A stretch of DNA of 64,000 bases from Isosphaeraceae bacterium EP7 (GCA_038400315.1 CP151667.1:5715174-5779173); one strand, 5' to 3'. Counted from the stretch's first letter, positions 17,169-39,804 are shown. Notes: generated by a model not told the origin, from the letters alone. Made by a program: numbers and translations.

Positions 17169-20100
17169 TCAGTGGGCTGCGGCGGGCGGGGCTTTGAGGC
17201 TCAGGAGGTATTCGACGAGGTCGGCGAATTCGACGGCGGTGAGGGTGTCGGCGAGGCCGGCGGGCATGATGGAGACGTCTCCGACTCGACGCTCCTCGAT
17301 GGTGGATTTGGGGAGGGTGTGGATGCGGGCTTCGGCGTCGGAGATTTCAAGGTTGGTGTCGGTCTCGGCGCGGACGAGGCCGGAGAGGACCTGGCCGTCG
17401 GCGAGGGCGAGGACGACGGGCTGGTAGCCGGTGGCGATTCGGGCGGAGGGCTCGAGGACGGAGCGGATGATCTCGGCCTTGTCGTACTTGGCGGCGAGGC
17501 CGGTGAGGTCGGGGCCGAAGTTGGCTGTGCCTTTGCCAGCGGCGGCGTGGCACTTCAGGCAGCCGATCCCTTTGGGCTCGAAGAAGATGGCCTCGCCCTT
17601 CTTCGCGTCGCCGGGGTTGGAGAGGGCGAAGGAGCGGAGACGCTCGGCCGGGGTGGTTCCGGCTCCCGCCGAGGCGAGCAGGCGGTCGGAGGGGTCGGAG
17701 AGCTGGACGCTGAAGGCCCAGGGGCCGATCCCTTGGCGGGTCCGCATGAGGAGGCGGTTCTTGCCTCGCTTGAGGTCGACGCGGACGGAGTCGGAGCCCG
17801 GGGAATAGGGGCGGCCGGCGAAGTTGTTGTAGTTGAAGGCGGGACGCTCGTTGAGCGTGACGATCAACGAGCCGCTGGACCCAATGCGGAGGATGGCCGG
17901 GCGTTCGGAGGTTGACTCGATCTCGGCATAGGCGAAGGAGGCGAGGTCGGGCGAGCCGTTGGTGTCGTAGCCGAAGCCACCTTTATCGCCGGCTCCCGCC
18001 TTGAAGTCGTCGATGAGGACGCGGCCCGTGGCGGGGTCGCCGGCGCGGGCCTGCCAGGCGATGTCGCGGCCTTCCACGCCGCTGTGATGGTGGGCGAAGT
18101 CGATGGAGGGCTCGCCGATGAAGACCTGCGCGGTGGTGCGGGCGAAGGGGCCGATGACGCGCCAGTCGACAATGGGTCGGAACCGAAGGAGCAGGCGGTC
18201 GACGGCCTGCGAGGCGGTCGGGGGGAGCGTCCCACCCCGCGCGGCGGCCTCGATCTGGTCGAGGGACGTCTCTCGCACCGCGGCGAGTGCTCCCTCGGCG
18301 GCGAGTCTGAGGCGCGGGTCGCGATCGGCCAGGGCATCGAGGAAGAGGGGGATGGCGCGGGGGTCGGGCATGATGGAGAGGGCGAGCAGGGCCTCGGAAC
18401 GCTCGGGCCCCTTGCTCAGCTTGAGCAGGCCCGGGATGGCGTCGCGGATGCGGGCCTGGGCGGACGCCTCGATGGCGGCCCGGCGGACGAGAGGGTCGGG
18501 ATCGGCGAGCCGCTCGACGATGACCTCGGAGGTTCCCGGCGGCTTCTTGCGGACGGCGGCCAGCACGACGAGTGCCGAGGCGCGGAGCGGGACCTCGTCG
18601 CTGGTGATGAAGCTGAGGACGTCATTTCCAGGCAGAAGACCCTGTCGGCCCAGGCCGTCGAGGGCCTTGGCACGCAGGACCGCGGGTGCGGCCTCATCAA
18701 ACAGCAGGGTCATCCGGGCGTTGGACGCGGCGCGATCGGGGAGTGAGGCCAGGGCGTCGAGCGCCGAGGCCCGGACGGGCAGGGACCGGCGGGGGTCGTT
18801 GAGGAGCTTCGCCAGCACGGGGAGCGAACTCCGATCGGCCAGGGCGCCCAGCGCACCGACCAGGGCCGCGAGGTTGGCGTCGTCGGTCTCGCGGGCCAGT
18901 CGGCCTCGAAGCGGGAGGAGGCCGTCGGAGCCGGTCAGGGCGAGCCCGGCGATGGCCGAGCGACGGACGGCGGGGTCGGGGTCCTCGATGCCCAGGGCGA
19001 GCCCCTTGATGACGGCGGTCATCGCGCGGGTGTCCCAGTTGACCGTCTTGGCGGGAAACTCGCCGGCCAGCGGGTTTGTGCCGAACCAGGCGCCGGTCCA
19101 GGCCGGATAAGTCCGGTAGAGGCCGGCCAGGGTGCGGACGATCTTGTCGCGGAACGGGGCGTCCTTGGAGAGGACGAGCGCCGCGGCGAGGCCCTCGACG
19201 GCGGGCAAGGTCCAGAGCTCATCGGCGAGGAGGATGGCCTGGTCGCGGCGTTTGGGGTCGAGAAGCGCGTCCTTCAAGGGGGCCGAATCCCAGGTCTTCA
19301 GGGATCGCAAGGCACCCCGGATGGACCAGCCGGCCGTGGTGTCGGGCTCGGACAGTGCGGCGAAGAGGGCGGGGATTGCGGCCGGATCGCCGGTGCGGCC
19401 GAGGGCGATGGCGGCCTCGCCGCGAATGGCGGGGTCGGGGTCTTTCAGGAGCTTGATGAGCGAGGGGACGGCCCCGCGATCGCGGCGGTTGCCGGCACTG
19501 CGAGCGGCCTGGAGGCGGACCTCGGGTGAGGTGTCGACCAGGGCGGCGCGGGCAGCGGAGCGGGCGTCGGGGGTGCCAATCGCATCCAGGGACCAGAGGG
19601 CGTGGATGCGATCGGTCGCGGGCTTATCCGAGAAGAGGAGCTTGATCAGCGGGGCGACGGATTTCGATCCGGCAAGCTTGCCCTGGGCCTTCAGGCGTAC
19701 GGAAAGCGCCGGGTGGCCGAGGGCGGCGAGGTCATCGGCGGGGGTCGCGACGGCGGAGGGCGCGTCGGATCCGGTGTAGGTCAGCTTGTAGAGGCGGCCC
19801 GACTTGACGTCGGCGGAGAGCCAGCCGGCGTAGGCCCAGTCGACGAGGTAGAAGCCCCGGCCGTCCTCGGCGACGGCCATGGAGAAGGGTCGGAAATCGG
19901 CCAGCTCCCCCTTGGTGACGAGGGGGGTCTTCGACTTCACCGTAAAGGTGCCGCCCGTCTTCTCGATCTCGTAGCGGAAGACGGTCTGCACGCCCCAGTC
20001 GGCGAAGAAGAGGTTCCCCCGATAGGCAGCAGGGAGCCCGGCCTCGTTGTAGCAGACGCCTTGCGCCCCCGATCCGCCGAGCTGGCCGGCGACAATGGGG

Positions 20101-20882
20101 AGGTTGCGCCAGGGGGTGCTGAGGAACTCATACGGATAGCCGTAGTGGCCGCCGACGACGTGGTGGGTCAGGCTGTTGGGCCACTTCTTGCTGTCGTCGT
20201 CGTTGCCGTACGTGAAGATGTCGTTGGTCGCGGTAAGCGCCACGGAGAGCGGGTTGCGCTCGCCGGTGGAAACGACCTCCAGACCGGTGCCATCGGGCCT
20301 GACGCGGACGACGCCCCCCCCTTTGAGCTGGATGGTCGCGCCGTCGGTTCCCGTGGCCTTCGGAATCCCCTTGTCGCCAACGGCGATGTAGAGGTAGCCG
20401 TCGATGCCCAGGCGGATCCCCGAGGCGACGTGGTCGTTGATCCCGCTGAAGCCCGGGAGCCGGGGCCCGAGGCCCTTGACGAGGTCGATCCGCTGGTCGG
20501 CCTTGCCGTCGCCGTCGGTGTCCTTGAACGCAGAGAGGAACGGGGCGTGGACGACATAAAGGGTGTTGTCCAGCCATTCCAGGCCCATCACGCTCCAGAG
20601 CCCGTCGGCGAAGAGGCGGACCTTACCGCCTTTGATGGCGACGACCGAGTCGATCGGCTGTGTGGGGGGGCCGGGCATGTCCATCGGGTCTTGCCCGAGG
20701 TAGACCGTGCCGTCGGGCGCCGCGACGACGGCGGTGGGGTAGAGGATCTGCGGGGCCTGCTCGATCAATTCGATCTTCCAGCCCTCGGCGACGGCTGGCA
20801 GGGGCTGGACGTCGGCAGAGCGGGCTTGGGCGCTGAGGAAGAGGCCGAGGACGACGAGGCCGGCGGCGCGGCTTGCGAGCAT
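17169..20882 (-). CDS. PVC-type membrane-bound dehydrogenase with HEAT repeats and C-terminal cytochrome c domain
   Basis: 1237 residues. A signal peptide ([22 protein letters not shown]) is followed by a beta-propeller of the PVC dehydrogenase type (residues ~25-385; [35 protein letters not shown]). HEAT repeats fill ~400-850. A beta-rich ligand-binding-like domain comes next, and a cytochrome c domain with heme motif CLKCH near residue 1120 and a later Met-containing SIMPAGLAD. Such proteins are abundant in planctomycetes and are thought to oxidise sugars or alcohols in the periplasm and pass electrons to c-type hemes. Start set at 20882 by GGGAGGAG. Confidence 0.9.
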
Positions 20883-21115
20883 GGAGGCTCCTCCCTGAAT
20901 GTCGAAGTCCTGGATGCGTGCGGCCTCGTGCCGGGCGTGGGCGTTGGGCGCCGTCGGATCGGATTGGGCGGATGTCGTGTCTTGGCCTGGCGATCGGGGG
21001 GGCGTTGCGGCAAAATTGTAGCGAACCGAGGTGGGCCCCACAACGCGATGCGCGAGCCTCGACCGGGCGCGTGGCATCGAGCCGTCCCGAGCCGATCCGA
21101 TCGAGGAGCCGACCC

Positions 21116-21499
21116 TTGTCCCAGCAGAACTTGCCCGCGAGCCTGTCGAACGCCGGGCCGACCGAGATCGCGCCCGTCCAGCCCGCCGACCCGAGGCGCA
21201 ACCCCAGCTATCCCCGGAGGTTGCACACCAACGAGCGCCCGCACTGGGAAGGCGTGCTGCGAGCCTGGGACGAGCGGATCGCCGAGGCCGCGGCGAAGCT
21301 CCCCGGCGCCGCCAATCGCGAGGCGCTGGACTACCTGCACGCGCAGATGCTCGGCGGCCGCGACCAGATCGCCATGACGGCCAGACGGCTGCCGCAGGAA
21401 GTTGGCGCGGGCTATGCGGAAGACCTGCACCTGATGGAGCGGGCCATCGCCGCGCTCGAGCGCGTCTTCCAGAAGTGGGACGCTGCCTCAAAAGCCTGA
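21116..21499 (+). CDS. Conserved hypothetical protein (helical)
   Basis: 127 residues, mostly helical and Ala/Glu-rich after a Pro/Asn-rich N-terminus. No signal or membrane segment, no recognised family. The segment HWEGVLRAWDERIAEAAAKL then two further helices suggests a small helical bundle. I choose the TTG start at 21116 because GAGGAG lies 7 bases upstream; no ATG fits at the start of the plausible protein sequence. It is divergent from the PVC dehydrogenase gene. Confidence 0.55.
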   Translation: MSQQNLPASLSNAGPTEIAPVQPADPRRNPSYPRRLHTNERPHWEGVLRAWDERIAEAAAKLPGAANREALDYLHAQMLGGRDQIAMTARRLPQEVGAGYAEDLHLMERAIAALERVFQKWDAASKA

Positions 21500-21555
21500 T
21501 GGCCCGCGCCATGTATTGACGTGATGCGGCCTCCTCGAAAATAGGGAGGCCGTTC

Positions 21556-27521: not shown

Positions 27522-28517
27522 TCAGGCCGAGAGGAAGGCCTCGCGGGCCATGAGGGAGGCGCCCAGGATGCCGGCGTTGTCGCCGAGGGCGGCGGCCACG
27601 AACTTGATCTTCATCTCGGGGTCGACCAGGATCTGACGGCGGGCGGACTGGCGGATGAGGTCGACGTAGGGGTCGCCCAGGGCCTCGACGACCCCGCCGC
27701 CGATGATGACCAGCTCGGGACCGAAGACGTTGACCAGGCTGCCCAGGCCGAGCCCGAGGTAGTGCGCCGACCGCTGGACGGCCCGGACGGCGACGAGGTC
27801 ATTGGCCTGGACGGCGGCGGCCAGCTCCCCGCTCTTGATCTTGCCCGACTTGCGGTCGATCTTGCTGCCGAAGACGCTGGGCTGGCCGTTGCGGACCGAC
27901 TTGGCGATGCGGCGGGCGATGGCCGTTCGGCTGGCCAGGGCCTCCATGCAGCCGCGCTGGCCGCAGCCGCAGCGGGGCCCGCCGGCCTTGACGGTCATGT
28001 GGCCGAGCTCGCCGGCGTTGCCGGTGGAGCCCTCGACGATCTTGCCGTCCATGATCAGGCAGCCGCCGATGCCCGTGCCGACGAAGGCGCCGATGAGGCT
28101 GTTGTAGCCGCGGCCGGCGCCGAGCTTGAACTCGCCATAGCCGCCCACGCGCACGTCGTTCTGGAGCAGGACGGGGAGGCCGCCGAGCGCCGCGGAGAGT
28201 CCCGGCCCGAGGTGGAACTCGCGGACGTTCATGTTGGCGCTGAAGTGGATCACGCCGGTTTTGGGGTCGAGCGGGCCGGGCGAGCCGATGCCCACGGCGG
28301 CGATGTCGTCGAGGGTCAGCCCGGACGCGGCGACGGCCTCGCGGACGCACGACTCGATGGCGGCGAGGATCGCATCTGCCCCGTCCTTGGCCGGGGTCGA
28401 CTTTTTGGATCGGCCTGAGATCGCCTGATCCGGGCCCACAACCCCGGCAAGGACCTTGGTCCCCCCCAGGTCCACGCCCACAACAGGCCGACCGCCATCC
28501 AGCTCTGACATAGTCAT
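27522..28517 (-). CDS. ROK family sugar kinase (glucokinase-like)
   Basis: 331 residues. The ATP phosphate-binding loop is DLGGTK near residue 16. The ROK zinc signature GH...KAGGPRCGCGQRGCME follows near residue 175, with all four ligands present. QNDVRVGGYGE stands where the catalytic Asp-containing NDANA segment occurs. It should phosphorylate glucose or a related sugar with ATP. The stop is 20 bases before the esterase gene start, so the two may be co-transcribed, which would link sugar release outside with phosphorylation inside (inference). ATG at 28517 or 28511 are both possible. Confidence 0.9.
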   Translation of the reverse strand: MTMSELDGGRPVVGVDLGGTKVLAGVVGPDQAISGRSKKSTPAKDGADAILAAIESCVREAVAASGLTLDDIAAVGIGSPGPLDPKTGVIHFSANMNVREFHLGPGLSAALGGLPVLLQNDVRVGGYGEFKLGAGRGYNSLIGAFVGTGIGGCLIMDGKIVEGSTGNAGELGHMTVKAGGPRCGCGQRGCMEALASRTAIARRIAKSVRNGQPSVFGSKIDRKSGKIKSGELAAAVQANDLVAVRAVQRSAHYLGLGLGSLVNVFGPELVIIGGGVVEALGDPYVDLIRQSARRQILVDPEMKIKFVAAALGDNAGILGASLMAREAFLSA

Positions 28518-28638: not shown

Positions 28639-31600
28639 TCAACGAGGGCGGAGGTCGCCGATGCGCCGGGTCAGCTCGGCGGCGAAGTCAAGGACCAGGG
28701 GGCGCCGATCACGCCGGCGGTCGTCGGTCACCTCCGGAGCCCCCTGGAGCAGCCCCGGCCAGTCGGCGACCCAGGCCGATTCGCGCTCACCGGCGTGGAC
28801 CAGCCAGGACGCGAGCCGGGCGAGCAGGACCTCGCCCCAGGCGTCGGCACCGTAAACGAGGCGCGCCACCAGGGCCCGGCGATCGAACTCGGACAGCCCG
28901 GCCGCTGGGAGTGTTTTCGTCCAGCGTCCGAGGGTCTCGCGCCGCGAACCCGGGTCGGAGCCTTCGCGCTCCAGATCGGTGAGCGCCTCGATGAACCGCC
29001 AGCGCACCAGGCCGCCGGCCGAGAGCCGAGACTCGTCGCGCTGAGTGGACCTGGGGGCGATGGCGTCGTCTTCGGGGCTGAGGCTGAGGTTGGCGAGCGG
29101 GTCGGCGGAGAAAATCCTGGGGACGAGCCATTCGCGCAGGGGTGCCAGCAATTCGAGGGCGACCGGAGCCATCGGGGCGCGTCGCGAGAAGGCATCGCGG
29201 AGGTCATCCTTCGCATCGGGGTACGAGCGGTGGTCCCACCAGGCCAGATCATACGGCTTGATCTCGGCGGCCCTCGACGCCAGCAGCGCGGCCAGCACGG
29301 CGCCGGGGCAGGCCCGGTCGCAGGCGTTGAAGAAGACCTCGCAGAACCGGGGGAGATTGGTCCCCTGGTTCAAGGCGTGGTCCCATTCGAGGAAGAGGGC
29401 CAACACCTCGGCGGCCGACTTGCCTCGCAGGTGGCGCTGGATATCGCGATAGAGCAGAGGCCAGTGCCCCTGGGCGTGGAGGAGCATCTCGCGCCAGGGG
29501 AAAAGGCCCCTGGCCCGCGACGCCCCCTTCGAGGCCAGCGCGACGATCTCGGAGGCGAGCCCGTCGTATTCGAGCCCTTCGTTCCGCGCATGCAGACCGA
29601 TCCGTCCGAGCAGCCACGAGAGCCTGGAAAGCCAGGCCTCCCACCCCAGGGTCGGGTCGCCGAGTGCCTCGGCAAGCGGCCTCGCCAGGCCTTCGAGGCC
29701 CGGTGCGCCGGCCTCGAAGGCCCCCGGCCAGGCGACGACGCAGCGATCGAGGAGGGGCGTGAAGGCGTCGTTCGAATCGCCGGCGAGGTAACGCTTCAGC
29801 AGCGCGAGCAAAGCCCCACGCTCCTCGGGCTGGACGTCGGCCAGGTCGACGCCGGCCAGGTCGTCGGGGCGTCGTTTCGCCAGGGCGGTAAGCAGCGACT
29901 GGGCGTTGCGGAACCGTTCGCGTGAGCGGGGTTCGAGGTCGTCGCGGTCGGCATCGATCCAGGCGCGGAGGCCGCGGTCCTTGAACTGGCTCAGGGAGGC
30001 GACGAGGGAATAGAGACTCGATCGGCTGAGGTAGGCATCGGCCCAACCTTCGCCGACAGGGCGGTCGGACGCGGGAAGGGTGAGGAGGACTTCCTCGACG
30101 GCCCACCGGAAGGGCTCGCGGGCCGCGAGTTCCGCCGCAACCCCGAGGACAACCCGGGCGAAGGCGGGACGCAAGAGTGCGGGGACGCGGTCGCGTCGAA
30201 GTCTCCAGTCGTCGCGGCCCTCGCCGGCCTGGAAGACGCGGGTCCAATAGGGGCGGAGCCAGGTCGCGGCGTCGTCGCGGCCCAGGGGCCAGTTCTCGAC
30301 GTCGGGCAGGTTGCGGCCGTGGGCCTTGTCGAACGTCCCGGCCAGATGCGAGGCGAGCGGACCGAGCTCCGAAGGCTTCGAGCAGGCGGCGAGAGCGTCG
30401 AGCACGGCGACGAGGGCTCCTTCGCTCTCGATCGCTTCGGTGAGTAGCGTGCGGAGCGGGCCGAGGTCGCCCGCCTCCAGCGAAGCCAGGGCATCGGGGG
30501 CGGCGAACGGCAGGAGCAAGCCCCGGCCGCAGAGCCCCGAGTTCGACAGCCAGAGGCGATCGAGTGTTGCGGCCTCGGGCGGGAGGGACGAGACCAAAGC
30601 GCCAACAAACGCCGGCCTGCATGCCTCGGGGGCTTTCTCCAGGGCAACACGAATGGCCGACCGACGCTCCTCGGTCGACGACTGCACGAAGCCGAGGCCG
30701 AGGGCCCGGCCCCAGGTGGACGCGGCGGCGGGGTCTGGCCATGCCCCACGGAACTTGAGATGGACGGAGAAGGCCTCGAACGCGGAGGCTGGCAGTGGTG
30801 CACGCCCGACGACCGCGAGCCACCAAGGGGCCCCGCGCCGGGCGGACCAGTCATTGCCGAGGCCGTTGCGGGCGGACCAGCCGGCGAGCTCGGCAATCCG
30901 ACGCCAGCCCCACTCATCTGTCGGCGGCTCGTTGGACTGCAACGCCAACTCGACGCCGACCAGCCCATCCAGCCAGGCGTCGGTCCAGCGGTCTTCGGTG
31001 GTCTCTGGCAGGCGGCAGGAACGGGCCCGGCGGTCGAGGCCGGACCTGGCTTCTCCGCCGGGCTGGACTGACCAGGCGGCCAGCGTCTCGGCCCAGCGCG
31101 GGACCTCGACGGGCGGGTCGATTGTCCCGGCGGTCAGGTCGGCGATGGCCCCCAGCGAGAGCAAGGCCGGGCGATTGGGCCGGGCCGCGAGGGCGGTCCC
31201 CTGAAGGCGGAGGCCGGGTAGTTCCTCGGGGCGTTCATGGAAGGTGGAGAAGGTCAGGTCGGGCCGTAAAGGGGACGGAAACGCCCAGGTGAGCAGGGCA
31301 ATCCGGTCGGCCAGGTGGTCGGGCTCATCGATCAGGAAGAGAGTCCGCCCCTCGCGGACGGCCCTTGCCGTTGCGGCCAGGAGGGCCGGCAAGGAGGGGT
31401 TCGTCGGCGAGAGCTCAACCGGGGGGAGCAGGTCGCCGCGGCCAGGCTCGATCGGTTCCGGCGCCCGACCGAGGCTCGGCTCGGGGTCTCCCCGTCGCCA
31501 GATCCGGGCCTCGCGGAGGCCGGCGGGCCAGTTGTCCAGGCGGGCAAGCTCCTCGGGTTCCAGGCGAAGGCCGTGGGCGAAGTGGCCACCGGGTCGTCCC

Positions 31601-31875
31601 CAGAGGCCGCGCTCGGTCTCGTACTCGTAGGGGCGAGGAGTGAGGTAGGCGACCTCGGCGGTGCCGGACTCCTCGTCGCGGCGGTAGCGCAGGACGGCGG
31701 GGGCGAGGGTGCGGGTGCCCGGCAGAAAGGCGCGATAGGCCAGGTGGCGGAAGTCGCCCGCGACGGGGTATCCCGGGGTCTTCCGCTTGATCTGGAACCC
31801 GCCGCTGGCACCCAGGCCGTAACCGGTGGGGCACTGGGTGTAGTAGATCTGCTCCAAAGGGGCCGTCCTCGGCAT
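28639..31875 (-). CDS. GAP1-like (GTPase-associated protein 1) large cytoplasmic protein
   Basis: 1078 residues, no signal or membrane segments. The N-terminus LEQIYYTQCPTGYGLGASGG followed by FQIKRKTPGY resembles the GAP1-N2 type domain described in predicted NTP-dependent conflict systems. A middle region LLPPVELSPTNPSLPALLAATARAV then LFLIDEPDHLADRIALLTWAFPSPLR fits GAP1-M. The rest is a long helical, Trp-rich C-terminal part. Family naming is from memory of these motifs; a profile search would settle it. The gene begins 10 bases after the vWA stop, so they form an operon. No GTPase gene is adjacent. Confidence 0.65.
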   Translation of the reverse strand: MPRTAPLEQIYYTQCPTGYGLGASGGFQIKRKTPGYPVAGDFRHLAYRAFLPGTRTLAPAVLRYRRDEESGTAEVAYLTPRPYEYETERGLWGRPGGHFAHGLRLEPEELARLDNWPAGLREARIWRRGDPEPSLGRAPEPIEPGRGDLLPPVELSPTNPSLPALLAATARAVREGRTLFLIDEPDHLADRIALLTWAFPSPLRPDLTFSTFHERPEELPGLRLQGTALAARPNRPALLSLGAIADLTAGTIDPPVEVPRWAETLAAWSVQPGGEARSGLDRRARSCRLPETTEDRWTDAWLDGLVGVELALQSNEPPTDEWGWRRIAELAGWSARNGLGNDWSARRGAPWWLAVVGRAPLPASAFEAFSVHLKFRGAWPDPAAASTWGRALGLGFVQSSTEERRSAIRVALEKAPEACRPAFVGALVSSLPPEAATLDRLWLSNSGLCGRGLLLPFAAPDALASLEAGDLGPLRTLLTEAIESEGALVAVLDALAACSKPSELGPLASHLAGTFDKAHGRNLPDVENWPLGRDDAATWLRPYWTRVFQAGEGRDDWRLRRDRVPALLRPAFARVVLGVAAELAAREPFRWAVEEVLLTLPASDRPVGEGWADAYLSRSSLYSLVASLSQFKDRGLRAWIDADRDDLEPRSRERFRNAQSLLTALAKRRPDDLAGVDLADVQPEERGALLALLKRYLAGDSNDAFTPLLDRCVVAWPGAFEAGAPGLEGLARPLAEALGDPTLGWEAWLSRLSWLLGRIGLHARNEGLEYDGLASEIVALASKGASRARGLFPWREMLLHAQGHWPLLYRDIQRHLRGKSAAEVLALFLEWDHALNQGTNLPRFCEVFFNACDRACPGAVLAALLASRAAEIKPYDLAWWDHRSYPDAKDDLRDAFSRRAPMAPVALELLAPLREWLVPRIFSADPLANLSLSPEDDAIAPRSTQRDESRLSAGGLVRWRFIEALTDLEREGSDPGSRRETLGRWTKTLPAAGLSEFDRRALVARLVYGADAWGEVLLARLASWLVHAGERESAWVADWPGLLQGAPEVTDDRRRDRRPLVLDFAAELTRRIGDLRPR

Positions 31876-31885
31876 CGGGTCGGAA

Positions 31886-33958
31886 TCAGAAGTCGATCAG
31901 GTCGAAGGCGACGGGGGCCAGGCCGTCGACGGTGCGGGCAGGGTCGGACCAATCGGCGTCATTGCGACGGCGGAGGAGCGCGGCGATGCTCGATCGGAGC
32001 CTGCGATCGAGGGCCCCGAGGTAGGCGTCGTCGGCGCGGAGCAGCTCCGACTGCGTGCGTCCGAGCAGGCCATCGGGCCGGGCGGGGGGAAGGCCTCCGC
32101 GCATCTGGATGGCATCGGCGAATGTCTGATCGCCCCGATCGGCGGCCAGAAACGACGTCTCGCCAGCGGCCGCCGCGGCGCCGATGCGGGCCAGGTCGAC
32201 GAGGTCGGCCGGGGCCGAGGCGGCGGCCTTCTGCCAGGCGACCAGTTCGCGAATCAAGTCGTCCAGCTCGTCTCGACTCATCAGGACATCCAGGGTCACG
32301 AGCCTGGCCTCTCCCATCGTCTGAGCAACCCAGCCTCTGCGGACCGAAGGGGCCTTGCGACCTCCCTGGCGAGGGTCGGGCCTGGGCACGGCGTCGGGTT
32401 CGCCCCGATGGAGGTCAACCAGCACAGGAGCGACCTTATCGAGCGTCAAGCCGCGGGCGTTGACGTATTCGGCAAGCTTCCCTTCGGCCTCGGCCGCGGC
32501 GAGCGCCGCCAGGGTCCGGGCATGCTCGACGCGGTCGGCGATGAGCGCCTGGAGGGTCGATTCCAGGCGGCCGGAATCGGTCAGGTCGATAACGACGGGC
32601 TCGATTGGCCGGGCGAACCCGTTGGCCTTGTCGCCGGGCAGGAATGAGCCGGCGGCCAGTGCGTTCCACTGGGCCTCGCGGCGATTTTTCTCGTCGCGCG
32701 AGAGCTGGCCCGGCCGGTCGAGGCCGACCGCCGCGATCGTGATCCCGGCGGTCTTCGCCAGGGCCGCCAGGGCATCGGCGCGATCGGTTCCACGCTCGTG
32801 GTCGGGGGCGTCGCCCAGCAGGACGAGCATCTTGGTGGCCAACTCGCCGGCGCGTCCCGTGGGCCAGTCGAGGTGCCTGAGCGTGCCCACCGTCTCGCCG
32901 GGGGCCGCGGGAAGGGCGACCGCCAGGCCGTCCATCACCGCCTCGTCGACCGAACCATCGCCGCGACTTGCAGCCTCAATCTGTTCGAGGGCCTTCAAGA
33001 AACCCTGCGGATCGGTGAACTCGGTGACGACACGGGCCCTGAAGCCGAAGGCGGGGGCGGCGTCGCGGTACTCGACTAGACCGAGGCGCAGCGTCACGTC
33101 TCGGGCGTGCCCCTGCGTCTCGTCGGCCAGGCCCGAGGCAAGTCGTCGCGCGGCGTCGATGGTCGCCTGCATCGAGGCGGTCGTGTCGACGGCGAACGCG
33201 ACGTAGGTCCGCTTCAGGGCCGGCAAGAAGTCGGCGGGAACCTCTCGCGGGCGAGGCTGCGGCGGAGCCCGGTCGCTCACCAGGCTGGCAACCTGATAGA
33301 TGGTCCTCGGCGGGCCTTCTTGCTGGGGAACGACCTTCGTGGCGAGCACCGGAATTCCGAGCGTCGCGGCGGCCTGGCTAGCGGCGTCTTCTTCGCCCTC
33401 GGTTGGGCAGGGATTGGGGGCGTGGCGCGGGCAGTCTCGGCCGGCCAGGGCATCGAGCAGGCAGGGCTCCTCGCGGTAGATGACCAGTGGAGCCCGGCCA
33501 GAACGCGGGGTGGGCCGGGCCATCACGCGGGTATCCCACTCGAAGACGGAATCCGCCGGTACCCAGCCGCGCGGGGGCCCTTCCCTGGGCCCGATCTGGA
33601 TGACCGGCCGGCCGTTGGCGCTGGCCTCGCCGTAGACGAAATGGATCGAGAAATAATCGAGCGGGCGCCCCGCCTTGTAGCCGGCCACCGGGTCGCTGGA
33701 ACAGACGACATCGAGGTCCTTGATGACCACCTTGCGCCTCAGGCCGTCGGCCGTGCGGAGAATGCCGTCGGCGGGCGGTATCGCAACCGCGAAGGGCTTC
33801 GGCTTCGAGCTCGCGTCGGTTTTCTCGGCGGAAACGGCGGGCGTCGATGCCGCCGGCCTCGTCGCGACCCGGCGCGCGAGCAAGCCCGGCAGGCCCCAGG
33901 CCAGTACGGCCAGCAGCGTGACGAGGTAGACAACGGGCATCCGGTAGAGCGCGGGCAT
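31886..33958 (-). CDS. Membrane-anchored von Willebrand factor A (vWA) domain protein
   Basis: 690 residues. Residues ~8-28 (PVVYLVTLLAVLAWGLPGLL) form one membrane anchor, so the bulk is extracytoplasmic or faces the cytoplasm depending on orientation. Residues ~75-165 form an SH3-like segment (YFSIHFVYGEA, GWVPADSVFEWDTRVMAR) resembling the region before vWA in PpkA-type proteins. The vWA domain starts near 250; its metal site is DTTAS (258-262) with a later Thr and a DAPDHE segment. It heads the operon with the GAP1-like gene. ATG at 33958 is chosen so that the anchor is N-terminal. Confidence 0.8.
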   Translation of the reverse strand: MPALYRMPVVYLVTLLAVLAWGLPGLLARRVATRPAASTPAVSAEKTDASSKPKPFAVAIPPADGILRTADGLRRKVVIKDLDVVCSSDPVAGYKAGRPLDYFSIHFVYGEASANGRPVIQIGPREGPPRGWVPADSVFEWDTRVMARPTPRSGRAPLVIYREEPCLLDALAGRDCPRHAPNPCPTEGEEDAASQAAATLGIPVLATKVVPQQEGPPRTIYQVASLVSDRAPPQPRPREVPADFLPALKRTYVAFAVDTTASMQATIDAARRLASGLADETQGHARDVTLRLGLVEYRDAAPAFGFRARVVTEFTDPQGFLKALEQIEAASRGDGSVDEAVMDGLAVALPAAPGETVGTLRHLDWPTGRAGELATKMLVLLGDAPDHERGTDRADALAALAKTAGITIAAVGLDRPGQLSRDEKNRREAQWNALAAGSFLPGDKANGFARPIEPVVIDLTDSGRLESTLQALIADRVEHARTLAALAAAEAEGKLAEYVNARGLTLDKVAPVLVDLHRGEPDAVPRPDPRQGGRKAPSVRRGWVAQTMGEARLVTLDVLMSRDELDDLIRELVAWQKAAASAPADLVDLARIGAAAAAGETSFLAADRGDQTFADAIQMRGGLPPARPDGLLGRTQSELLRADDAYLGALDRRLRSSIAALLRRRNDADWSDPARTVDGLAPVAFDLIDF

Positions 33959-34086
33959 GGGCTTCGATGATTCCAGGCGCGAGGGTCGGACGCTGGGCAG
34001 CGGCCGACTCTCGCGGTACGTTCGATCGTATGACGGCGGTGCCCTCGCGGGCAACCCGCCGGGCTCGGACCCCTGGAGGCCTTGGC

Positions 34087-35787
34087 ATGCCGCGTCGGTT
34101 CTGGATCGTCTGGTTTTCTGGCCTGATGCTGCTGGCCAAGTCGGGGGAATCGCTCGCCGAGTCGGTCTCGCTCCGTGGCTGGGAAGCCACTGCCAGGCTG
34201 GGGACCGGCCCGGCCGGTCGCGGGACATTCCGACTCATCGCTCGGTCCGACTGGCGTCCCGACGCCCCGCGCGAAGTGGGCCGATACTCCGTCCGCCTCA
34301 CCCGGGGCGACGGCCGGACGACCGTCTCCGACCTCGCGCACGAGGATGCCCCTCCCTCGCGGCGGCTTCACCTGGAACTTCCCGCCGCCGAGATCCGCAA
34401 CGTCCGTCCTGTCGACTTCTCGCTGCGCCTGGAGGTCCTCGACAAGTCGACCGGGGCGGTGGTCGGCGGCCCGCTGGTGGCGACGATCGCCCAGTTCCCG
34501 CACGGCCGGCCAGAGCCCGGCACCGTGCTCAACACCCGCCCATTCGGCTGGGGTGAGCCGCTCGCCGTCGATGGCAAAGCCCACCCCCTGCCCCGGCCCG
34601 GCCCCGACGGACTGTCGTTCGTCCGCGTGCCGGGCCTGGGCGATATGCCTGGGTTCTTCATCGCCGCTAGTGAGGCCAGCAATCGTCAGGTCGCCTCCCG
34701 CCTGCCGGGCTACGATCCGCGGGCGGGCCGATCCGACGAGTTCAACCTGGAAGACACCGACCAGCCTGCGGTCGGACTGACCGTCGAGCGGGCCGGTGCA
34801 TATCTAGACGCCCTCGGTAAGGCCGATGCATCGGGGATGTCTTATCGACTTCCTACTCGGGACGAATGGATTCGAGCCGCTCGTGCGGGCCGTAAGACGG
34901 CTTTCTGGTGGGGCGACGAGCCCGCGTATTCCTCCGGCGCGAATCTGCTCGGGCCCGAGCCCGCGCTGGCCATCGACTCCACCGCCCCGGTCGCGGGGAC
35001 CAGGGCCCGACACTCGTTCGCACCGAATCCCTGGGGCCTCTTCCACACGTTCGGGAATGTCGAGGAGTGGGCCGCCTACCCCGAGGGGAAATTCGCGCGG
35101 ATGGGGGGGCACTTCCGCACCGAGCCAGTCGCCAAGCCCGACGAGCCCGTCTTTGATCGGAAGGACGAGGTGGGGGACGACGCCTACGTCGGAGTCCGGC
35201 CGGCACTGGACGCGACCGCGGCCCGCGTCGAAGGCCTGGCGAAAACGCTCCTCTCGGGGCGCCCGGGGCTTGAGCGGGTCACCGCCCGCTTCGATCCGGA
35301 CCGGGCCATGCTCACCCTGAATGGCACGGTGGCCGATGCCTCGATGCGACGGGCCGCCGATGCTCTGATGGGCCGGCTCTGGTTCGTGGCCGCCCTGGAC
35401 GACCGGATCGAAGCCCCCGCCGTTGGCCCCCGGCACCTCGCGGCACTGACTCCGATCGTCGGCCCCATGACGAGGCGCACGGGCGGAGGGCGCCCCTACT
35501 TCCAGGTTGCCGTGCCAGCCCGCTGGGTCGATCCGCTTCCGGCCGAGGGCTCCGACTGGTACGTGAATCTCGACGTGGGAGGCGTGGCCTCGTCGCACAG
35601 GCTGGTGGAAACCCGCCCCGGCACCCGAGGAGTGACGCTGCTCCTCGATCGCCAGGCCCTCGCCTCGATCCCGTCGGGCGGTGCCTTCGACGTGTCCGCC
35701 TGGCTCAGCCTGGGGGCGCCGGCGGTGAAGCCGGACGAAGCCTCGGTGGTCAGCAACCGGGTCGTTGTCCGGCCGAGGAAACCCTAG
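34087..35787 (+). CDS. Secreted protein with FGE-sulfatase (SUMF1-like) domain
   Basis: 566 residues with signal peptide (FWIVWFSGLMLLAKSGESLA). An N-terminal beta-rich part is followed by an FGE/SUMF1-type fold (~200-390): YRLPTRDEWIRAARAG, AFWWGD, NPWGLFHTFGNVEEWAAYP and VGVRPAL. The copper-binding Cys pair of true formylglycine-generating enzymes is not evident, so it is more likely a binding or C-type-lectin-like relative. Residues ~410-460 (LTLNGTVADASMRRAADAL) look BON-like. It is divergent from the vWA gene with a 128-bp shared promoter region and converges with the kinase gene. TGGAGG supports the ATG. Confidence 0.8.
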   Translation: MPRRFWIVWFSGLMLLAKSGESLAESVSLRGWEATARLGTGPAGRGTFRLIARSDWRPDAPREVGRYSVRLTRGDGRTTVSDLAHEDAPPSRRLHLELPAAEIRNVRPVDFSLRLEVLDKSTGAVVGGPLVATIAQFPHGRPEPGTVLNTRPFGWGEPLAVDGKAHPLPRPGPDGLSFVRVPGLGDMPGFFIAASEASNRQVASRLPGYDPRAGRSDEFNLEDTDQPAVGLTVERAGAYLDALGKADASGMSYRLPTRDEWIRAARAGRKTAFWWGDEPAYSSGANLLGPEPALAIDSTAPVAGTRARHSFAPNPWGLFHTFGNVEEWAAYPEGKFARMGGHFRTEPVAKPDEPVFDRKDEVGDDAYVGVRPALDATAARVEGLAKTLLSGRPGLERVTARFDPDRAMLTLNGTVADASMRRAADALMGRLWFVAALDDRIEAPAVGPRHLAALTPIVGPMTRRTGGGRPYFQVAVPARWVDPLPAEGSDWYVNLDVGGVASSHRLVETRPGTRGVTLLLDRQALASIPSGGAFDVSAWLSLGAPAVKPDEASVVSNRVVVRPRKP

Positions 35788-35916
35788 GACCAGACGCTCG
35801 CGGAGGAGGCTTCACGTCGGAAGCGAGGGGACCGCCCTGGCGGTTCCGAAGTCCGTCGAGAGCGCGTCCGGAACGTCCGACGGTTCGAGACCCCGAGCCA
35901 CCTCGGCGCGAATCTC

Positions 35917-38900
35917 TTACTTCGTCTCGGCTCGGTGATGGCTCGCCGTATTCTTTGGTGGAGCGGAAGCGGCGGCGGAAGAGCTTCCGAGGATCAACTC
36001 TTCGGCCTCGCGGCGCAGGATGCGAATCTCCACGTCGTCCCAGGAGAAATCGGAGCCCGCCTTGGGCTGATAGGCCGCCAGCTTTTCCAGCCAGTGTTTG
36101 GCCTCATCGCGCCGGCGCAGGCGGTGGTTGACCATCGCCTGGAAGGCGAACCCCTTCGGATCGCCTCCATCCTCACGGGCTCGATTGCTTTCGTCGAAAC
36201 GGCGGGCGGCGTCCTCGAATCGGCCAACGCGGTAGAGAGCCGCCCCGAGGGTCATGAGATACCCGCTTAGCTCTCGACCTCGCACCGGTTTCGCGGCCAG
36301 AGCGTACTCTGCCAGACGCACCGGGGCCTCGTAGTCCTCGACCGAGCCCGGAGCCAGCACGCAATACCAGGCTAAGCTGTTGGCATGGACGAAATCGTTC
36401 ACTTTGCCAAACCTGCTGAGCAGGTCTTCGCAGGCGCGCCGGAGCCCGGCGCTGTCCCGAGCCCCCGCGAGGGACCGGATGTATGAATACCGAAGGGTCG
36501 GGCTGTCGGGCTCCTGCTCGACGAACTTGCTGAAGGCCGCGGCCGCCAGGTCCCACCGCCCGCTCCGAGCCAGGCTCTCGGCCCGTTGGGCCGCCTCGGT
36601 CACCCTGGCAAGTTCCTCGAACGCCTGGACCCGCTGCTGATTCCGAGAGTCGTGCGCCCGGAGGACGTCGTCGGTGAGCGGGGTCGCGTCCCAGACGCGG
36701 GCGGTGAAGTCGATGCCGCCGGAAACGATCCGGCGGCCGTCGGGGCTGAAGGCCACCACGAGCAAGCCGGCGGTATGGCCGCGGAGGGTGAAGACCTCGC
36801 GGCCGGTCGCCGTGTCCCAGAGCTTGATCGTTCGATCATAGCTGGCGGTGGCGATCCGACGGCCGTCGGGGCTGAAGGCGATAGCGACGATGTCCGCGGT
36901 ATGGCCGACAAGAGTGTGGAGGACCCGGCCGGTCGCCACGTCGAGGACCACGACCGTGATTTTCGCGTACTTCTTGCTGCGATCGAACGTCAGGAACCCA
37001 TCACCCCCAACCCACACACGGGCGAGCCGCGTGCCGTCAGGGCTGGTCACGGGCTGAGGCATGCCCTCAAATGGGAATAAGGATGGCGGGAGGTATGCGT
37101 CCCCGTGTGACGCGGGGACGACACCGGTCATCGCGGGGTCGGGGTCGCCCGTAACCGGGTCCCAGCCCATGGTCGTATCCCCCTCGAGCCGGTAAGGGCC
37201 CGCTTCGGAGACGACCCGCCTGCCGTCACGGCGGAAGCCCAGGCTCACCACCCAGCCCGTATGCCGGTCGAAAACGACCGGGAGACTCGTCCGCCGGTCC
37301 CAGACCTTCATCGTCCCGTCCAGGCCGCCCGAGGCCAGCTCGCGGCCGTCGGGAGCGAAGGCGACGGCTTGCACGAAGTCGGCATGGCCGTGGAACACAC
37401 CGATCGGGCGGCCGGTGGGAATCTCCCAGAGCCGGACACTCCTGTCCTCGCCCGTCGAGACAAGCGATCGGCTGTCGGGGCTGAAGGCCAGGTCGCGGAT
37501 GAACCCCTGATGCCCGTAGAGTGTCAGTTGCTCCTCGCCGGTGGCCGCGTCCCGGAGCTTGATCACCCGGTCCCAGCCGCCGATGGCCAGCCACTTCCCG
37601 TCGGGGCTGAAGGCGACGGTATACACATACCTTGAATCGCCCGGGATTTCATGGACTCTCATGCGGGCCACGACGTCCCAGACCTCGACGAGCTTCGAGC
37701 CGGCGACGGCAAGATGTCTACCGTCGCGGTGGAACGCCAGGTCGTTGACCCCTCCCTTCGGGCCGGGGAACGTGAACGTCTTCCGGCCGTTTGCAACCTC
37801 GTAAAGCGTGACCTTGTGGACATTGTCCTGGCTGAATCGGCCAAAACCCACGGCCAGCGATTTGCCATCGGGGTTGAAGGCGACGCTCATGGCATGAGGT
37901 AACTTGGGCTCATGTTCGGCCCAGAGGATTTCCCCGGTCTTGACATCTCGGATCTCGATTTGGGGGTTCGACCCGCCAATGGCCAGCTTGGTTCCGTCGG
38001 GACTGAATCTCACGCTCCAAATGAGGTTCTCGACGCAGTGAATGAGCTGCTGCCGCTGGCCAGTCTCCCGATTCCACAGCTCGACGATTGAACTGCCCTT
38101 GCCAATGGAGGAAGGCCCGCGCGAGCCAATGGCAATGAGGCGTCCATCGGGGCTGTAGGCGATTGAGACGACGATGCCGCCGAGCGCCTCAACAGACAGG
38201 CGCTCGGGGTGGCAGAGCCGATTGACGTAGTGCCACTCCCAGCCGCGGCGCTCGATCGGACAGCCGTGGAGCAGGTCCTCGGCCAGTGCGATGTTATCGG
38301 CTTGCACCTCGCCATAGGCCCGGTTGACCCGGTTGATGTAATCTTCCCAGGCCAGGTCCTCCGCTCGCTGGTTGGCGATCTTCGTCTGATCCTGGGCGAT
38401 CGCATTGGCCACGGCTTCGGTCCTGGCCAGTCTTTCGGCCGTCGCGAGCGACCGGTGGATCTCGGCGTAGGACCAGATCCAGAGCCCCAGCAATAACCCG
38501 AGGAGCAGGAAGACGGACACGGCCAGTGACACGATCGATGGCCGGCGCCGCGCCCACTTGATGGCCCGCTCCCAGGGCGGGACCGGTCGCGCCACGATCG
38601 GCTCGTTGTCGAGGAACCGTCGGAGGTCGGCGGCCAACGCTTCGGCCGAGTCGTAGCGCTTCCCTGGCTCCTTCTCCAGGCATTTCAGCGCAATCGTCTC
38701 GATGTCGCGCGGCAGGCCGTGGACAAGCCGCGACGGCGGCACGGGCTCGACCGTCTTGACCTGCTCCAACGTCTCCTGGACCGCCGCACCCCGAAACGGC
38801 GGGCGGCCGGCCAGCAGCTTGTAGAGGATCGCCCCCAGGGCGTAGACGTCGGCGAGTGGCCCGAGCCCCTTGGTCTTGCCCTCGGCCTGCTCGGGGGCCA

Positions 38901-39804
38901 TGTAGCTGGGCGAGCCCATGACCGATTGGGTGGCCGTCAGGTCGCTCTCGGTGTTCATGGCCCTGGCCAGGCCGAAGTCGGTGATCTTGGGGGTGCCGTC
39001 GGCGGCAATCAAGATGTTGGCAGGTTTCAGGTCGCGGTGGACGATGCCCAGGCGATGCGCCTGGGCAACGCCGCGCGCCAGTGACTCGACCAGCTCGGCC
39101 GCCCGCCGAGGCGGCCAGGGGTTGCCGTCGAGCCGTTTGTCGAGGCTGCCCCCCTCGACGTACTCCAGCTCGAAGAACGGCAGGCCGTCGGCCTCGCCAA
39201 CGTGGTGGATCTGGACGATGTTCGGGTGTTGCAAACGGGCGACAGCCTCCGCCTCGGCCAGGAAGCGGGATTTGGCCTCGTCGTCCGCATGGGCGCCGGC
39301 AAGGATCATCTTCAAGGCGCAGGGGCGATTCAGACCGACCTCTCTCGCAAGGTAGACGACCCCCATGCCGCCGCGGCCCAGTTCTCCCAGGATCTGGTAG
39401 CCGCGGATCGCGGGGATGGGCCGCTCCCGGGGAGCCGGAGGAGTCTCGACTTCCGGCTTTTCGACGATGGAGCTGGCCGACGAACTGCTCGACGATAGAA
39501 CTGTCAGATCAAGCTTGGCCACGCATCGGTCGTATTCCCCGAAGGGAGATAACGTTGCGATGGTGGGCACATTGATCCGATGGAGTAGGGCGGCAGGGCC
39601 CGACGTATCGAGCGCGGCTTCATCTAGCGAGGAGGACGGCAAGGTTGGGAGTTTGCGGCCCTCGTTCTCTCCCATTGTGTCGGCTGGTCCGAACACGGGC
39701 GGACCAGGGCCAACGAAACGCGACGAGCCGACCTCATCGTCCGGTAAGGGTCTCGGACCGTCCTCGAGGGACTTACGGTCAAAGGAGTTCGCACCTCCCA
39801 TCAT
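35917..39804 (-). CDS. Ser/Thr protein kinase with transmembrane segment, WD40 repeats and TPRs
   Basis: 1295 residues. Residues ~135-400 are a Hanks-type kinase: glycine loop GRGGMGVVY, Lys165 in CALK, HRDLKPANIL (Asp258), DFG 276-278, and APEQ. One membrane helix at ~423-445 separates it from the C-terminal half. That half holds seven to ten WD40 repeats (VAFSPDG...GWDRVIKLRD type) and ends in TPR-like helices. The N-terminal 130 residues are low-complexity with a Ser run. Such receptors sense signals outside the membrane through the propeller and phosphorylate inside. Pro/Ser-rich juxtamembrane parts are probable autophosphorylation sites. Confidence 0.92.
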   Translation of the reverse strand: MMGGANSFDRKSLEDGPRPLPDDEVGSSRFVGPGPPVFGPADTMGENEGRKLPTLPSSSLDEAALDTSGPAALLHRINVPTIATLSPFGEYDRCVAKLDLTVLSSSSSSASSIVEKPEVETPPAPRERPIPAIRGYQILGELGRGGMGVVYLAREVGLNRPCALKMILAGAHADDEAKSRFLAEAEAVARLQHPNIVQIHHVGEADGLPFFELEYVEGGSLDKRLDGNPWPPRRAAELVESLARGVAQAHRLGIVHRDLKPANILIAADGTPKITDFGLARAMNTESDLTATQSVMGSPSYMAPEQAEGKTKGLGPLADVYALGAILYKLLAGRPPFRGAAVQETLEQVKTVEPVPPSRLVHGLPRDIETIALKCLEKEPGKRYDSAEALAADLRRFLDNEPIVARPVPPWERAIKWARRRPSIVSLAVSVFLLLGLLLGLWIWSYAEIHRSLATAERLARTEAVANAIAQDQTKIANQRAEDLAWEDYINRVNRAYGEVQADNIALAEDLLHGCPIERRGWEWHYVNRLCHPERLSVEALGGIVVSIAYSPDGRLIAIGSRGPSSIGKGSSIVELWNRETGQRQQLIHCVENLIWSVRFSPDGTKLAIGGSNPQIEIRDVKTGEILWAEHEPKLPHAMSVAFNPDGKSLAVGFGRFSQDNVHKVTLYEVANGRKTFTFPGPKGGVNDLAFHRDGRHLAVAGSKLVEVWDVVARMRVHEIPGDSRYVYTVAFSPDGKWLAIGGWDRVIKLRDAATGEEQLTLYGHQGFIRDLAFSPDSRSLVSTGEDRSVRLWEIPTGRPIGVFHGHADFVQAVAFAPDGRELASGGLDGTMKVWDRRTSLPVVFDRHTGWVVSLGFRRDGRRVVSEAGPYRLEGDTTMGWDPVTGDPDPAMTGVVPASHGDAYLPPSLFPFEGMPQPVTSPDGTRLARVWVGGDGFLTFDRSKKYAKITVVVLDVATGRVLHTLVGHTADIVAIAFSPDGRRIATASYDRTIKLWDTATGREVFTLRGHTAGLLVVAFSPDGRRIVSGGIDFTARVWDATPLTDDVLRAHDSRNQQRVQAFEELARVTEAAQRAESLARSGRWDLAAAAFSKFVEQEPDSPTLRYSYIRSLAGARDSAGLRRACEDLLSRFGKVNDFVHANSLAWYCVLAPGSVEDYEAPVRLAEYALAAKPVRGRELSGYLMTLGAALYRVGRFEDAARRFDESNRAREDGGDPKGFAFQAMVNHRLRRRDEAKHWLEKLAAYQPKAGSDFSWDDVEIRILRREAEELILGSSSAAASAPPKNTASHHRAETK

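What the first reader, a model, noticed from the sequence alone, without database searches (positions are those of the whole stretch)
28639..39804. GAP1-like, vWA, FGE-like and kinase-WD40 genes side by side
A GAP1-like protein and a membrane vWA protein form a tight operon (10-base gap). A divergent FGE-sulfatase-like secreted protein and a transmembrane kinase with WD40 repeats follow. In published comparative work, GAP1 and vWA modules recur in NTP-dependent conflict systems, usually with a GTPase. Here no GTPase is present, while a kinase and an FGE-like protein take its place. This may be an undescribed variant that links envelope sensing to a cytoplasmic effector.
Basis: partly seen in the sequence, partly recalled or inferred. 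Interest (0 to 1): 0.66.

Follow-up and report, generated by a model that had tools for sequence, protein, structure and literature searches.

The report
GAP1 operon with T6SS-like envelope sensor
In one family of planctomycete bacteria, a cytoplasmic GAP1 signalling protein is encoded beside a secreted and membrane protein pair whose membrane partner is related to the envelope-damage sensor of type VI secretion systems, which suggests that bacteria reuse one outer-surface alarm with different internal responders.

Summary
The four genes are real and lie where stated, and the 28639-31875 protein is a divergent GAP1-N2 homologue (GAP1-M above Pfam's cut-off in this protein and matched in 15/15 family members; GAP1-N2 weaker). 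Two parts of the reading fail. The WD40-kinase is not a conserved partner: no other GAP1 or vWA locus in the family has a kinase gene nearby. And the GTPase has not been replaced: the genome encodes a DO-GTPase of a distinct clade 0.7 Mb away, found in 15 of the 17 GAP1-L genomes and in none of the 28 others. A ROK sugar-kinase gene, overlooked, is the steadiest GAP1 neighbour (14 of 15). The new point is the vWA gene: it is homologous over SH3-like, vWA and C-terminal regions to the vWA protein of T6SS TagR/TagS/TagT sensor operons and of SrfABC operons, where a SUMF1/FGE-like protein is again a neighbour. The window's FGE-like protein has no cysteine and cannot be an active FGE. Best reading: a TagR/PpkA-vWA-type envelope sensor feeding a GAP1/DO-GTPase relay, an Isosphaeraceae variant of GAP1-N2 systems. 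FGE-like domains near planctomycete GAP1 were already noted (Kaur 2020). Function is untested.

The parts
27522..28517 (-). ROK-family sugar kinase gene directly downstream of GAP1
   Evidence: Pfam ROK 222.8 bits; next to GAP1-L on the same strand in 14 of 15 loci with that flank available. May be synteny rather than function.
28639..31875 (-). GAP1-like protein (GAP1-L), 1078 aa, no hydrophobic stretch: N-terminal beta domain, alpha/beta M domain, then ~800 aa all-helical solenoid
   Evidence: GAP1-M in 15/15 and GAP1-N2 in 9/15 family members; AlphaFold2 mean pLDDT 80.7; importin/HEAT-like solenoid matches only, low TM; hydropathy
31886..33958 (-). vWA protein, ~690 aa: one N-terminal TM helix, SH3-like region, vWA with DxTxS MIDAS motif, C-terminal domain; homologous to the T6SS/SrfABC-associated vWA protein
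   Evidence: start inferred from homologues
33959..34086 (.). divergent intergenic region between vWA and FGE-like genes (probable shared promoter region; no sigma-70 consensus found)
   Evidence: coordinates
34087..35787 (+). probably secreted FGE/SUMF1-like protein, 566 aa, no cysteine (cannot be a copper-dependent FGE)
   Evidence: FGE-sulfatase 61 bits; Cys count 0; divergent to vWA in 8 of 13 vWA genomes. Export inferred from the N-terminal sequence only.
35917..39804 (-). Ser/Thr kinase - TM - WD40 protein; judged NOT part of the conserved system
   Evidence: Pfam Pkinase and WD40; no kinase domain in the other GAP1-L/vWA loci of the family

Best explanation
The locus encodes an Isosphaeraceae variant of the GAP1-N2/DO-GTPase systems whose envelope input is a TagR/PpkA-vWA-type module. 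Shown by sequence: the vWA protein belongs to the family that in proteobacteria sits in T6SS regulatory operons (kinase, PP2C, vWA, ABC transporter, SUMF1-like protein) and in SrfABC operons; the divergent FGE-like gene encodes a cysteine-free, probably exported SUMF1-like protein; GAP1-L has no membrane segment and co-occurs with its own clade of DO-GTPase, encoded at another locus. Inferred: the FGE-like protein acts as an envelope co-receptor (as TagR does for PpkA), engaging the vWA protein when the envelope is damaged or a ligand arrives; the vWA protein, through an unidentified membrane partner (in relatives perhaps the linked ABC-2-type permease and a small membrane protein), changes the state of the GAP1-L/DO-GTPase pair, which assembles or releases a cytoplasmic response. 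The ROK kinase and the WD40-kinase are not needed by this model.
For: GAP1-N2 and GAP1-M domains. vWA homology to the T6SS/Srf vWA protein: tblastn E down to 5e-10 from residue ~88 on, profile 68-95 bits, hhalign probability 99.7%, 462 columns reaching into the C-terminal domain, reverse profile E 3e-24. Those homologues stand beside SUMF1-like and ABC transporter genes, and in another planctomycete family the order vWA-ABC-FtsX-FGE recurs. vWA-GAP1-ROK order in 4 genomes that do not form one clade; FGE divergent to vWA in 8 of 13. GAP1-L co-occurs with DO-GTPase clade L (15/17 vs 0/28) and with close vWA homologues (13/17 vs 0/28). DO-L keeps P-loop GPQSVGKTT, Walker B DTAGE, NKLD and zinc-ribbon cysteines. 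Literature: TagQRST/PpkA senses outer-membrane damage (PMC11881912); PpkA has an extracellular vWA sensor domain and TagR is its likely co-receptor (PMC3224232).
Against: No experiment. vWA and GAP1 are unlinked in the Tautonia-like genomes (G039-G042), and four GAP1-L genomes lack a close vWA homologue, so the pair is not obligatory. FGE resembles TagR only as an FGE-fold protein (hhalign probability 93%, E 4.5e-7; its named NCBIfam matches are GldK and PvdO). The vWA protein has almost no cytoplasmic part, so how it would signal to GAP1 is unknown. No TagS/TagT-type transporter was identified beside the window genes. Co-occurrence p-values ignore shared ancestry.
Confidence: 0.5

Rival explanations
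1. A locally complete variant in which the transmembrane WD40-kinase and FGE replace the GTPase: the kinase senses or transduces and GAP1 acts without a GTPase.
For: The four genes lie side by side; a kinase+PP2C+vWA theme exists for actinobacterial GAP1-N2 systems (PMC7159879).
Against: No kinase in the other GAP1-L/vWA loci; the kinase is on the far side of the FGE gene and converges on it; no PP2C among flanking genes scanned; DO-GTPase clade L is present in the genome.
Confidence: 0.06
2. Chance neighbours: vWA/FGE is an independent envelope module and GAP1-L belongs functionally only with the DO-GTPase; adjacency in four genomes reflects inherited synteny around a ROK housekeeping gene.
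For: ROK is the steadiest neighbour even where vWA is elsewhere; vWA and GAP1-L are 3.8 Mb apart in one near-complete genome, G040; vWA-ABC-FtsX-FGE exists in G365, where no GAP1-L was found.
Against: Close vWA homologues occur only in GAP1-L genomes of this family (13/17 vs 0/28); operon-like spacing of about 10-30 bases between vWA and GAP1 in four genomes of separate branches.
Confidence: 0.29
3. A conflict (defence) system in which the FGE-like protein is a binding effector against an invader, as Kaur et al. propose for FGS domains, with GAP1/DO-GTPase as the switch.
For: FGS-domain effectors were reported in some planctomycete GAP1-N2 systems (PMC7159879).
Against: The FGE is probably exported and paired with a vWA homologous to an envelope-sensor protein, not fused to a cytoplasmic effector; no PADLOC model matches GAP1-L, vWA or FGE; no effector gene identified. 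PADLOC kinase hits are generic.
Confidence: 0.15

Closest known systems
GAP1-N2 / DO-GTPase systems (Kaur et al. 2020, PMC7159879; Pfam PF20013, PF20014, PF19993)
   Same: GAP1-N2 and GAP1-M domains; a DO-GTPase with zinc ribbon and P-loop in the same genome; envelope-facing components; some planctomycete members with an FGE domain
   Different: GTPase at another locus; GAP1 and DO-GTPase lineages distinct from those of the canonical 4-gene operon (DO-GTPase, GAP1, ~980-aa protein, GYF protein) of other family members; longer protein with a helical solenoid; FNIII component not seen; coupled to a T6SS-sensor-type vWA
TagQRST-PpkA threonine phosphorylation pathway of T6SS (PMC11881912, PMC3224232)
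   Same: homologous vWA protein; a probably exported SUMF1/FGE-like partner gene beside it
   Different: no fused kinase, no conserved kinase neighbour, no FtsX/TagT pair or T6SS genes at the locus; GAP1 in their place; presence independent of T6SS
SrfABC-linked TagRST/vWA operons (PMC3608642)
   Same: the vWA-TagR-type module used outside T6SS with a different cytoplasmic partner set
   Different: partners are SrfB/SrfC rather than GAP1/DO-GTPase

Membership tests
GAP1 (GAP1-N2 type) | GAP1-M domain | tested here: met
   28.1 bits vs cut-off 24; 15/15 family members match
GAP1 (GAP1-N2 type) | GAP1-N2 domain | tested here: inconclusive
   17.6 bits, below cut-off 24, but colinear (residues 7-128) and matched in 9/15 family members
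GAP1 (GAP1-N2 type) | GAP1-C domain | not tested
   no GAP1-C match was reported; the C-terminal part is a predicted helical solenoid, not compared with GAP1-C
GAP1-N2 / DO-GTPase system | DO-GTPase gene next to or fused with GAP1 | tested here: not met
   none among the window genes scanned; clade-L DO-GTPase 0.7 Mb away; adjacent to GAP1-L in G006 and within 20 kb in G037-G040
GAP1-N2 / DO-GTPase system | DO-GTPase in the same genome | tested here: met
   442.8 bits to profile A3; PF19993 27.7 bits vs cut-off 27
GAP1-N2 / DO-GTPase system | FNIII-repeat component | tested here: not met
   no FNIII match among the window genes scanned
T6SS TagR/PpkA sensor module | vWA protein homologous to the operon's vWA protein (SH3-like + vWA + C-terminal domain) | tested here: met
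   hhalign 99.7%, 462 columns; profile hits both ways. Compared with split vWA proteins (Tistrella, Gluconobacter, Klebsiella), not with P. aeruginosa PpkA itself
T6SS TagR/PpkA sensor module | exported SUMF1-like TagR partner | tested here: inconclusive
   FGE domain and neighbour position yes; specific TagR orthology not shown
T6SS TagR/PpkA sensor module | fused or adjacent kinase, TagS/TagT ABC transporter, T6SS linkage | tested here: not met
   kinase not conserved; only an ABC-2 permease in relatives; T6SS locus of the genome lacks the module; GAP1-L vs TssB p=0.54
Formylglycine-generating enzyme | active-site cysteine pair | tested here: not met
   no cysteine in the 566-aa protein
MoxR-vWA ternary system | MoxR AAA+ gene beside the vWA gene | tested here: not met
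   none among the flanking genes scanned

The most novel reading that the evidence does not exclude
A T6SS-type envelope-damage sensor (vWA + TagR-like protein) is an exchangeable input module that in Isosphaeraceae drives a GAP1/DO-GTPase switch instead of a kinase, with the GTPase encoded in trans: one envelope alarm wired to at least three different cytoplasmic responders (T6SS kinase, SrfBC, GAP1/GTPase).
Probability: 0.35. Interest if true: 0.68.

Novelty: new variant of a known kind. Interest (0 to 1): 0.5.

Why it matters
If right, it gives GAP1/DO-GTPase systems, whose trigger is unknown, a concrete and testable input: outer-envelope damage sensed by a vWA/TagR-like pair already studied in Pseudomonas. 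It would also show that the T6SS 'tit-for-tat' sensor is a portable module, and it warns that GAP1 loci without a GTPase next door may have one elsewhere in the genome.

Tried and rejected
Kinase as a conserved partner: rejected. GTPase loss: rejected; the Pfam family search alone returned only the universal ~790-aa DO-GTPase2 protein in this genome, and a family-specific profile was needed to find clade L. T6SS dependence: rejected, TssB presence does not track GAP1-L. Solved-structure sequence searches with the GAP1-L and vWA alignments found nothing; Foldseek gave only generic HEAT/importin solenoids and generic vWA domains, and the vWA model is of low confidence (pLDDT 64). Direct profile-profile comparison of GAP1-L with canonical GAP1 was weak (3% probability, E 0.013) though colinear. 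Plasmid search with GAP1-L: nothing. PADLOC: nothing specific. A phylum-wide search found GAP1-L only in this family apart from one weak hit, but just two candidates per genome were scored; a GTDB pattern scan returned 12 loci, the named ones all Isosphaeraceae and the rest planctomycete bins. ABC-2 permease of the relatives' module: this genome holds only distant paralogues.

Full report
The observation. The window lies in a 7.2-Mb genome of the family that holds Singulisphaera and Tautonia (Isosphaeraceae; 45 genomes of the family held; relatives named through). The four genes are present as stated and score as coding by codon usage. The vWA gene ends 10 bases before the GAP1 gene. Homologues align from about 33958, so the vWA ORF's longer start at 34228 is probably not used; the FGE gene probably starts near 34087, leaving a short divergent intergenic region.

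GAP1. Pfam gives GAP1-M at 28.1 bits (cut-off 24) and a colinear, sub-threshold GAP1-N2. Of 15 family members, all match GAP1-M and nine GAP1-N2. The AlphaFold2 model (mean pLDDT 80.7) has a beta-rich N-domain, an alpha/beta middle domain and a long helical solenoid. I call this group GAP1-L: it is 1050-1170 aa long and distinct from the canonical ~850-aa GAP1 of other genomes in the family, which sits in an operon of DO-GTPase, GAP1, a ~980-aa protein and a GYF-domain protein. A direct profile comparison of the two groups is weak but colinear, so the homology claim rests on the Pfam models.

Neighbourhoods. GAP1-L occurs in 17 of 45 family genomes. A close vWA homologue is present in 13 of the 17 and in none of the other 28. 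The order vWA-GAP1-ROK, with about 10-30 bases between vWA and GAP1, is seen in G000, G025, G007 and G008, which do not form one clade in the GAP1-L tree; vWA is 2-8 kb away in three more (G037, G038, G006) and unlinked in the Tautonia-like species. The FGE gene is divergent to vWA in 8 of 13. In relatives the FGE is often followed by a small membrane protein and an ABC-2-type permease. No kinase domain was found in the flanks of the other GAP1-L or vWA loci of the family, so the WD40-kinase is most likely a chance neighbour.

The GTPase. A Pfam search of this genome returned only a ~790-aa DO-GTPase2 protein; a gene of this size class is found across the family. A profile built from GAP1-associated DO-GTPases (A3) found a second one at C1:6454288-6455586, about 0.7 Mb from the window. 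It matches PF19993 just above its cut-off (27.7 vs 27) and keeps zinc-ribbon cysteines, P-loop, DTAGE and NKLD motifs. A tree separates it, with 14 relatives, from the DO-GTPases of canonical operons by a fully supported branch. This clade L is in 15 of 17 GAP1-L genomes (a sixteenth, G024, has a contig-end fragment) and in none of the 28 others; G032 holds a long-branched outgroup. In G006 it directly follows GAP1-L, and in G037-G040 it lies within 20 kb. So the GTPase has moved, not vanished.

The vWA protein. Tblastn against plasmids hit, from residue ~88 through the vWA domain, proteins encoded in (a) a T6SS regulatory operon of Tistrella (tagF, PP2C, kinase, vWA, ABC ATPase, FtsX permease, SUMF1-like, small protein) and (b) SrfABC operons of Gluconobacter and Klebsiella with the same kinds of genes behind the vWA. 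Profiles confirm homology both ways, and hhalign aligns 462 columns at 99.7% probability, reaching into the C-terminal domain. In another planctomycete family (G365) a vWA, ABC ATPase, FtsX permease and FGE-like gene stand in a row, and GAP1-L was not found in that genome. That Tag genes accompany SrfABC outside T6SS was reported in 2013 for Deltaproteobacteria (PMC3608642). The window genome's own T6SS sheath locus lacks this module, and T6SS presence does not track GAP1-L.

The FGE-like protein. It has an FGE domain (61 bits), a probable export signal (by eye only) and no cysteine at all, so it is not a working formylglycine-generating enzyme. Its similarity to TagR is at the level of the FGE fold. 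Kaur et al. noted FGS-domain 'effectors' in some planctomycete GAP1-N2 systems (PMC7159879), so the GAP1-FGE association itself is not new.

Mechanism. In Pseudomonas, TagQRST and PpkA detect outer-membrane damage (PMC11881912), PpkA's extracellular part holds a vWA domain, and TagR is its likely co-receptor (PMC3224232). By homology of the vWA protein and the recurring SUMF1-like partner I propose the same sensing logic here, with GAP1-L and the DO-L GTPase as the cytoplasmic responder. Shown: homologies, neighbourhoods, co-occurrence. Inferred: export, interactions, direction of signalling, response. The weakest link is the membrane step, since the vWA protein has only a few residues on the cytoplasmic side. 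The alternative that vWA/FGE and GAP1-L are separate modules that share an old neighbourhood stays open (about 0.3).

Novelty. A search of the paper library found GAP1-N2/DO-GTPase in essentially one work, which does not mention TagR or T6SS, and no paper joining planctomycetes, TagR, vWA and GAP1. Its supplementary gene tables could not be read here, so the locus may be listed there without comment. I rate it a new variant of a known kind.

Noticed in passing
G000:C1:3176696-3193693 (L179-L180): The window's genome has a T6SS sheath gene (T6SS_VipA, 207 bits) at C1:3181432, in what looks like a secretion locus; 22 of 45 family genomes have a TssB match.
   Followed up: partly
L164:7799-14526 (G365, another planctomycete family): vWA, ABC ATPase, FtsX permease and FGE-like genes in a row, a TagTSR-like sensor operon; GAP1-L was not found in this genome.
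   Followed up: partly
L159:5627-9189 (G006:C579): A second, contig-end GAP1-L copy preceded with a 4-base overlap by a 733-aa WD40 protein.
   Followed up: no
L048, L087, L089, L145, L146, L148: The clade-L DO-GTPase gene has a GrpE-like gene close by in many genomes including the window's own, reminiscent of the HSP70/GrpE theme of GAP1-N2 systems.
   Followed up: partly
L033:17963-19662 (G038): The FGE-like gene is split into two overlapping ORFs (frameshift or sequencing error).
   Followed up: no
window 17169-21512 (-): 1447-aa protein with DUF7133, HEAT repeats and a cytochrome c domain.
   Followed up: no
window 31886-33958 (-), residues 166-184 of the vWA protein (alignment A2): Invariant C166, C176, H179 and C184 lie between the SH3-like and vWA regions and are not seen in the Tistrella homologue there; possible disulfide or metal site.
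   Followed up: no
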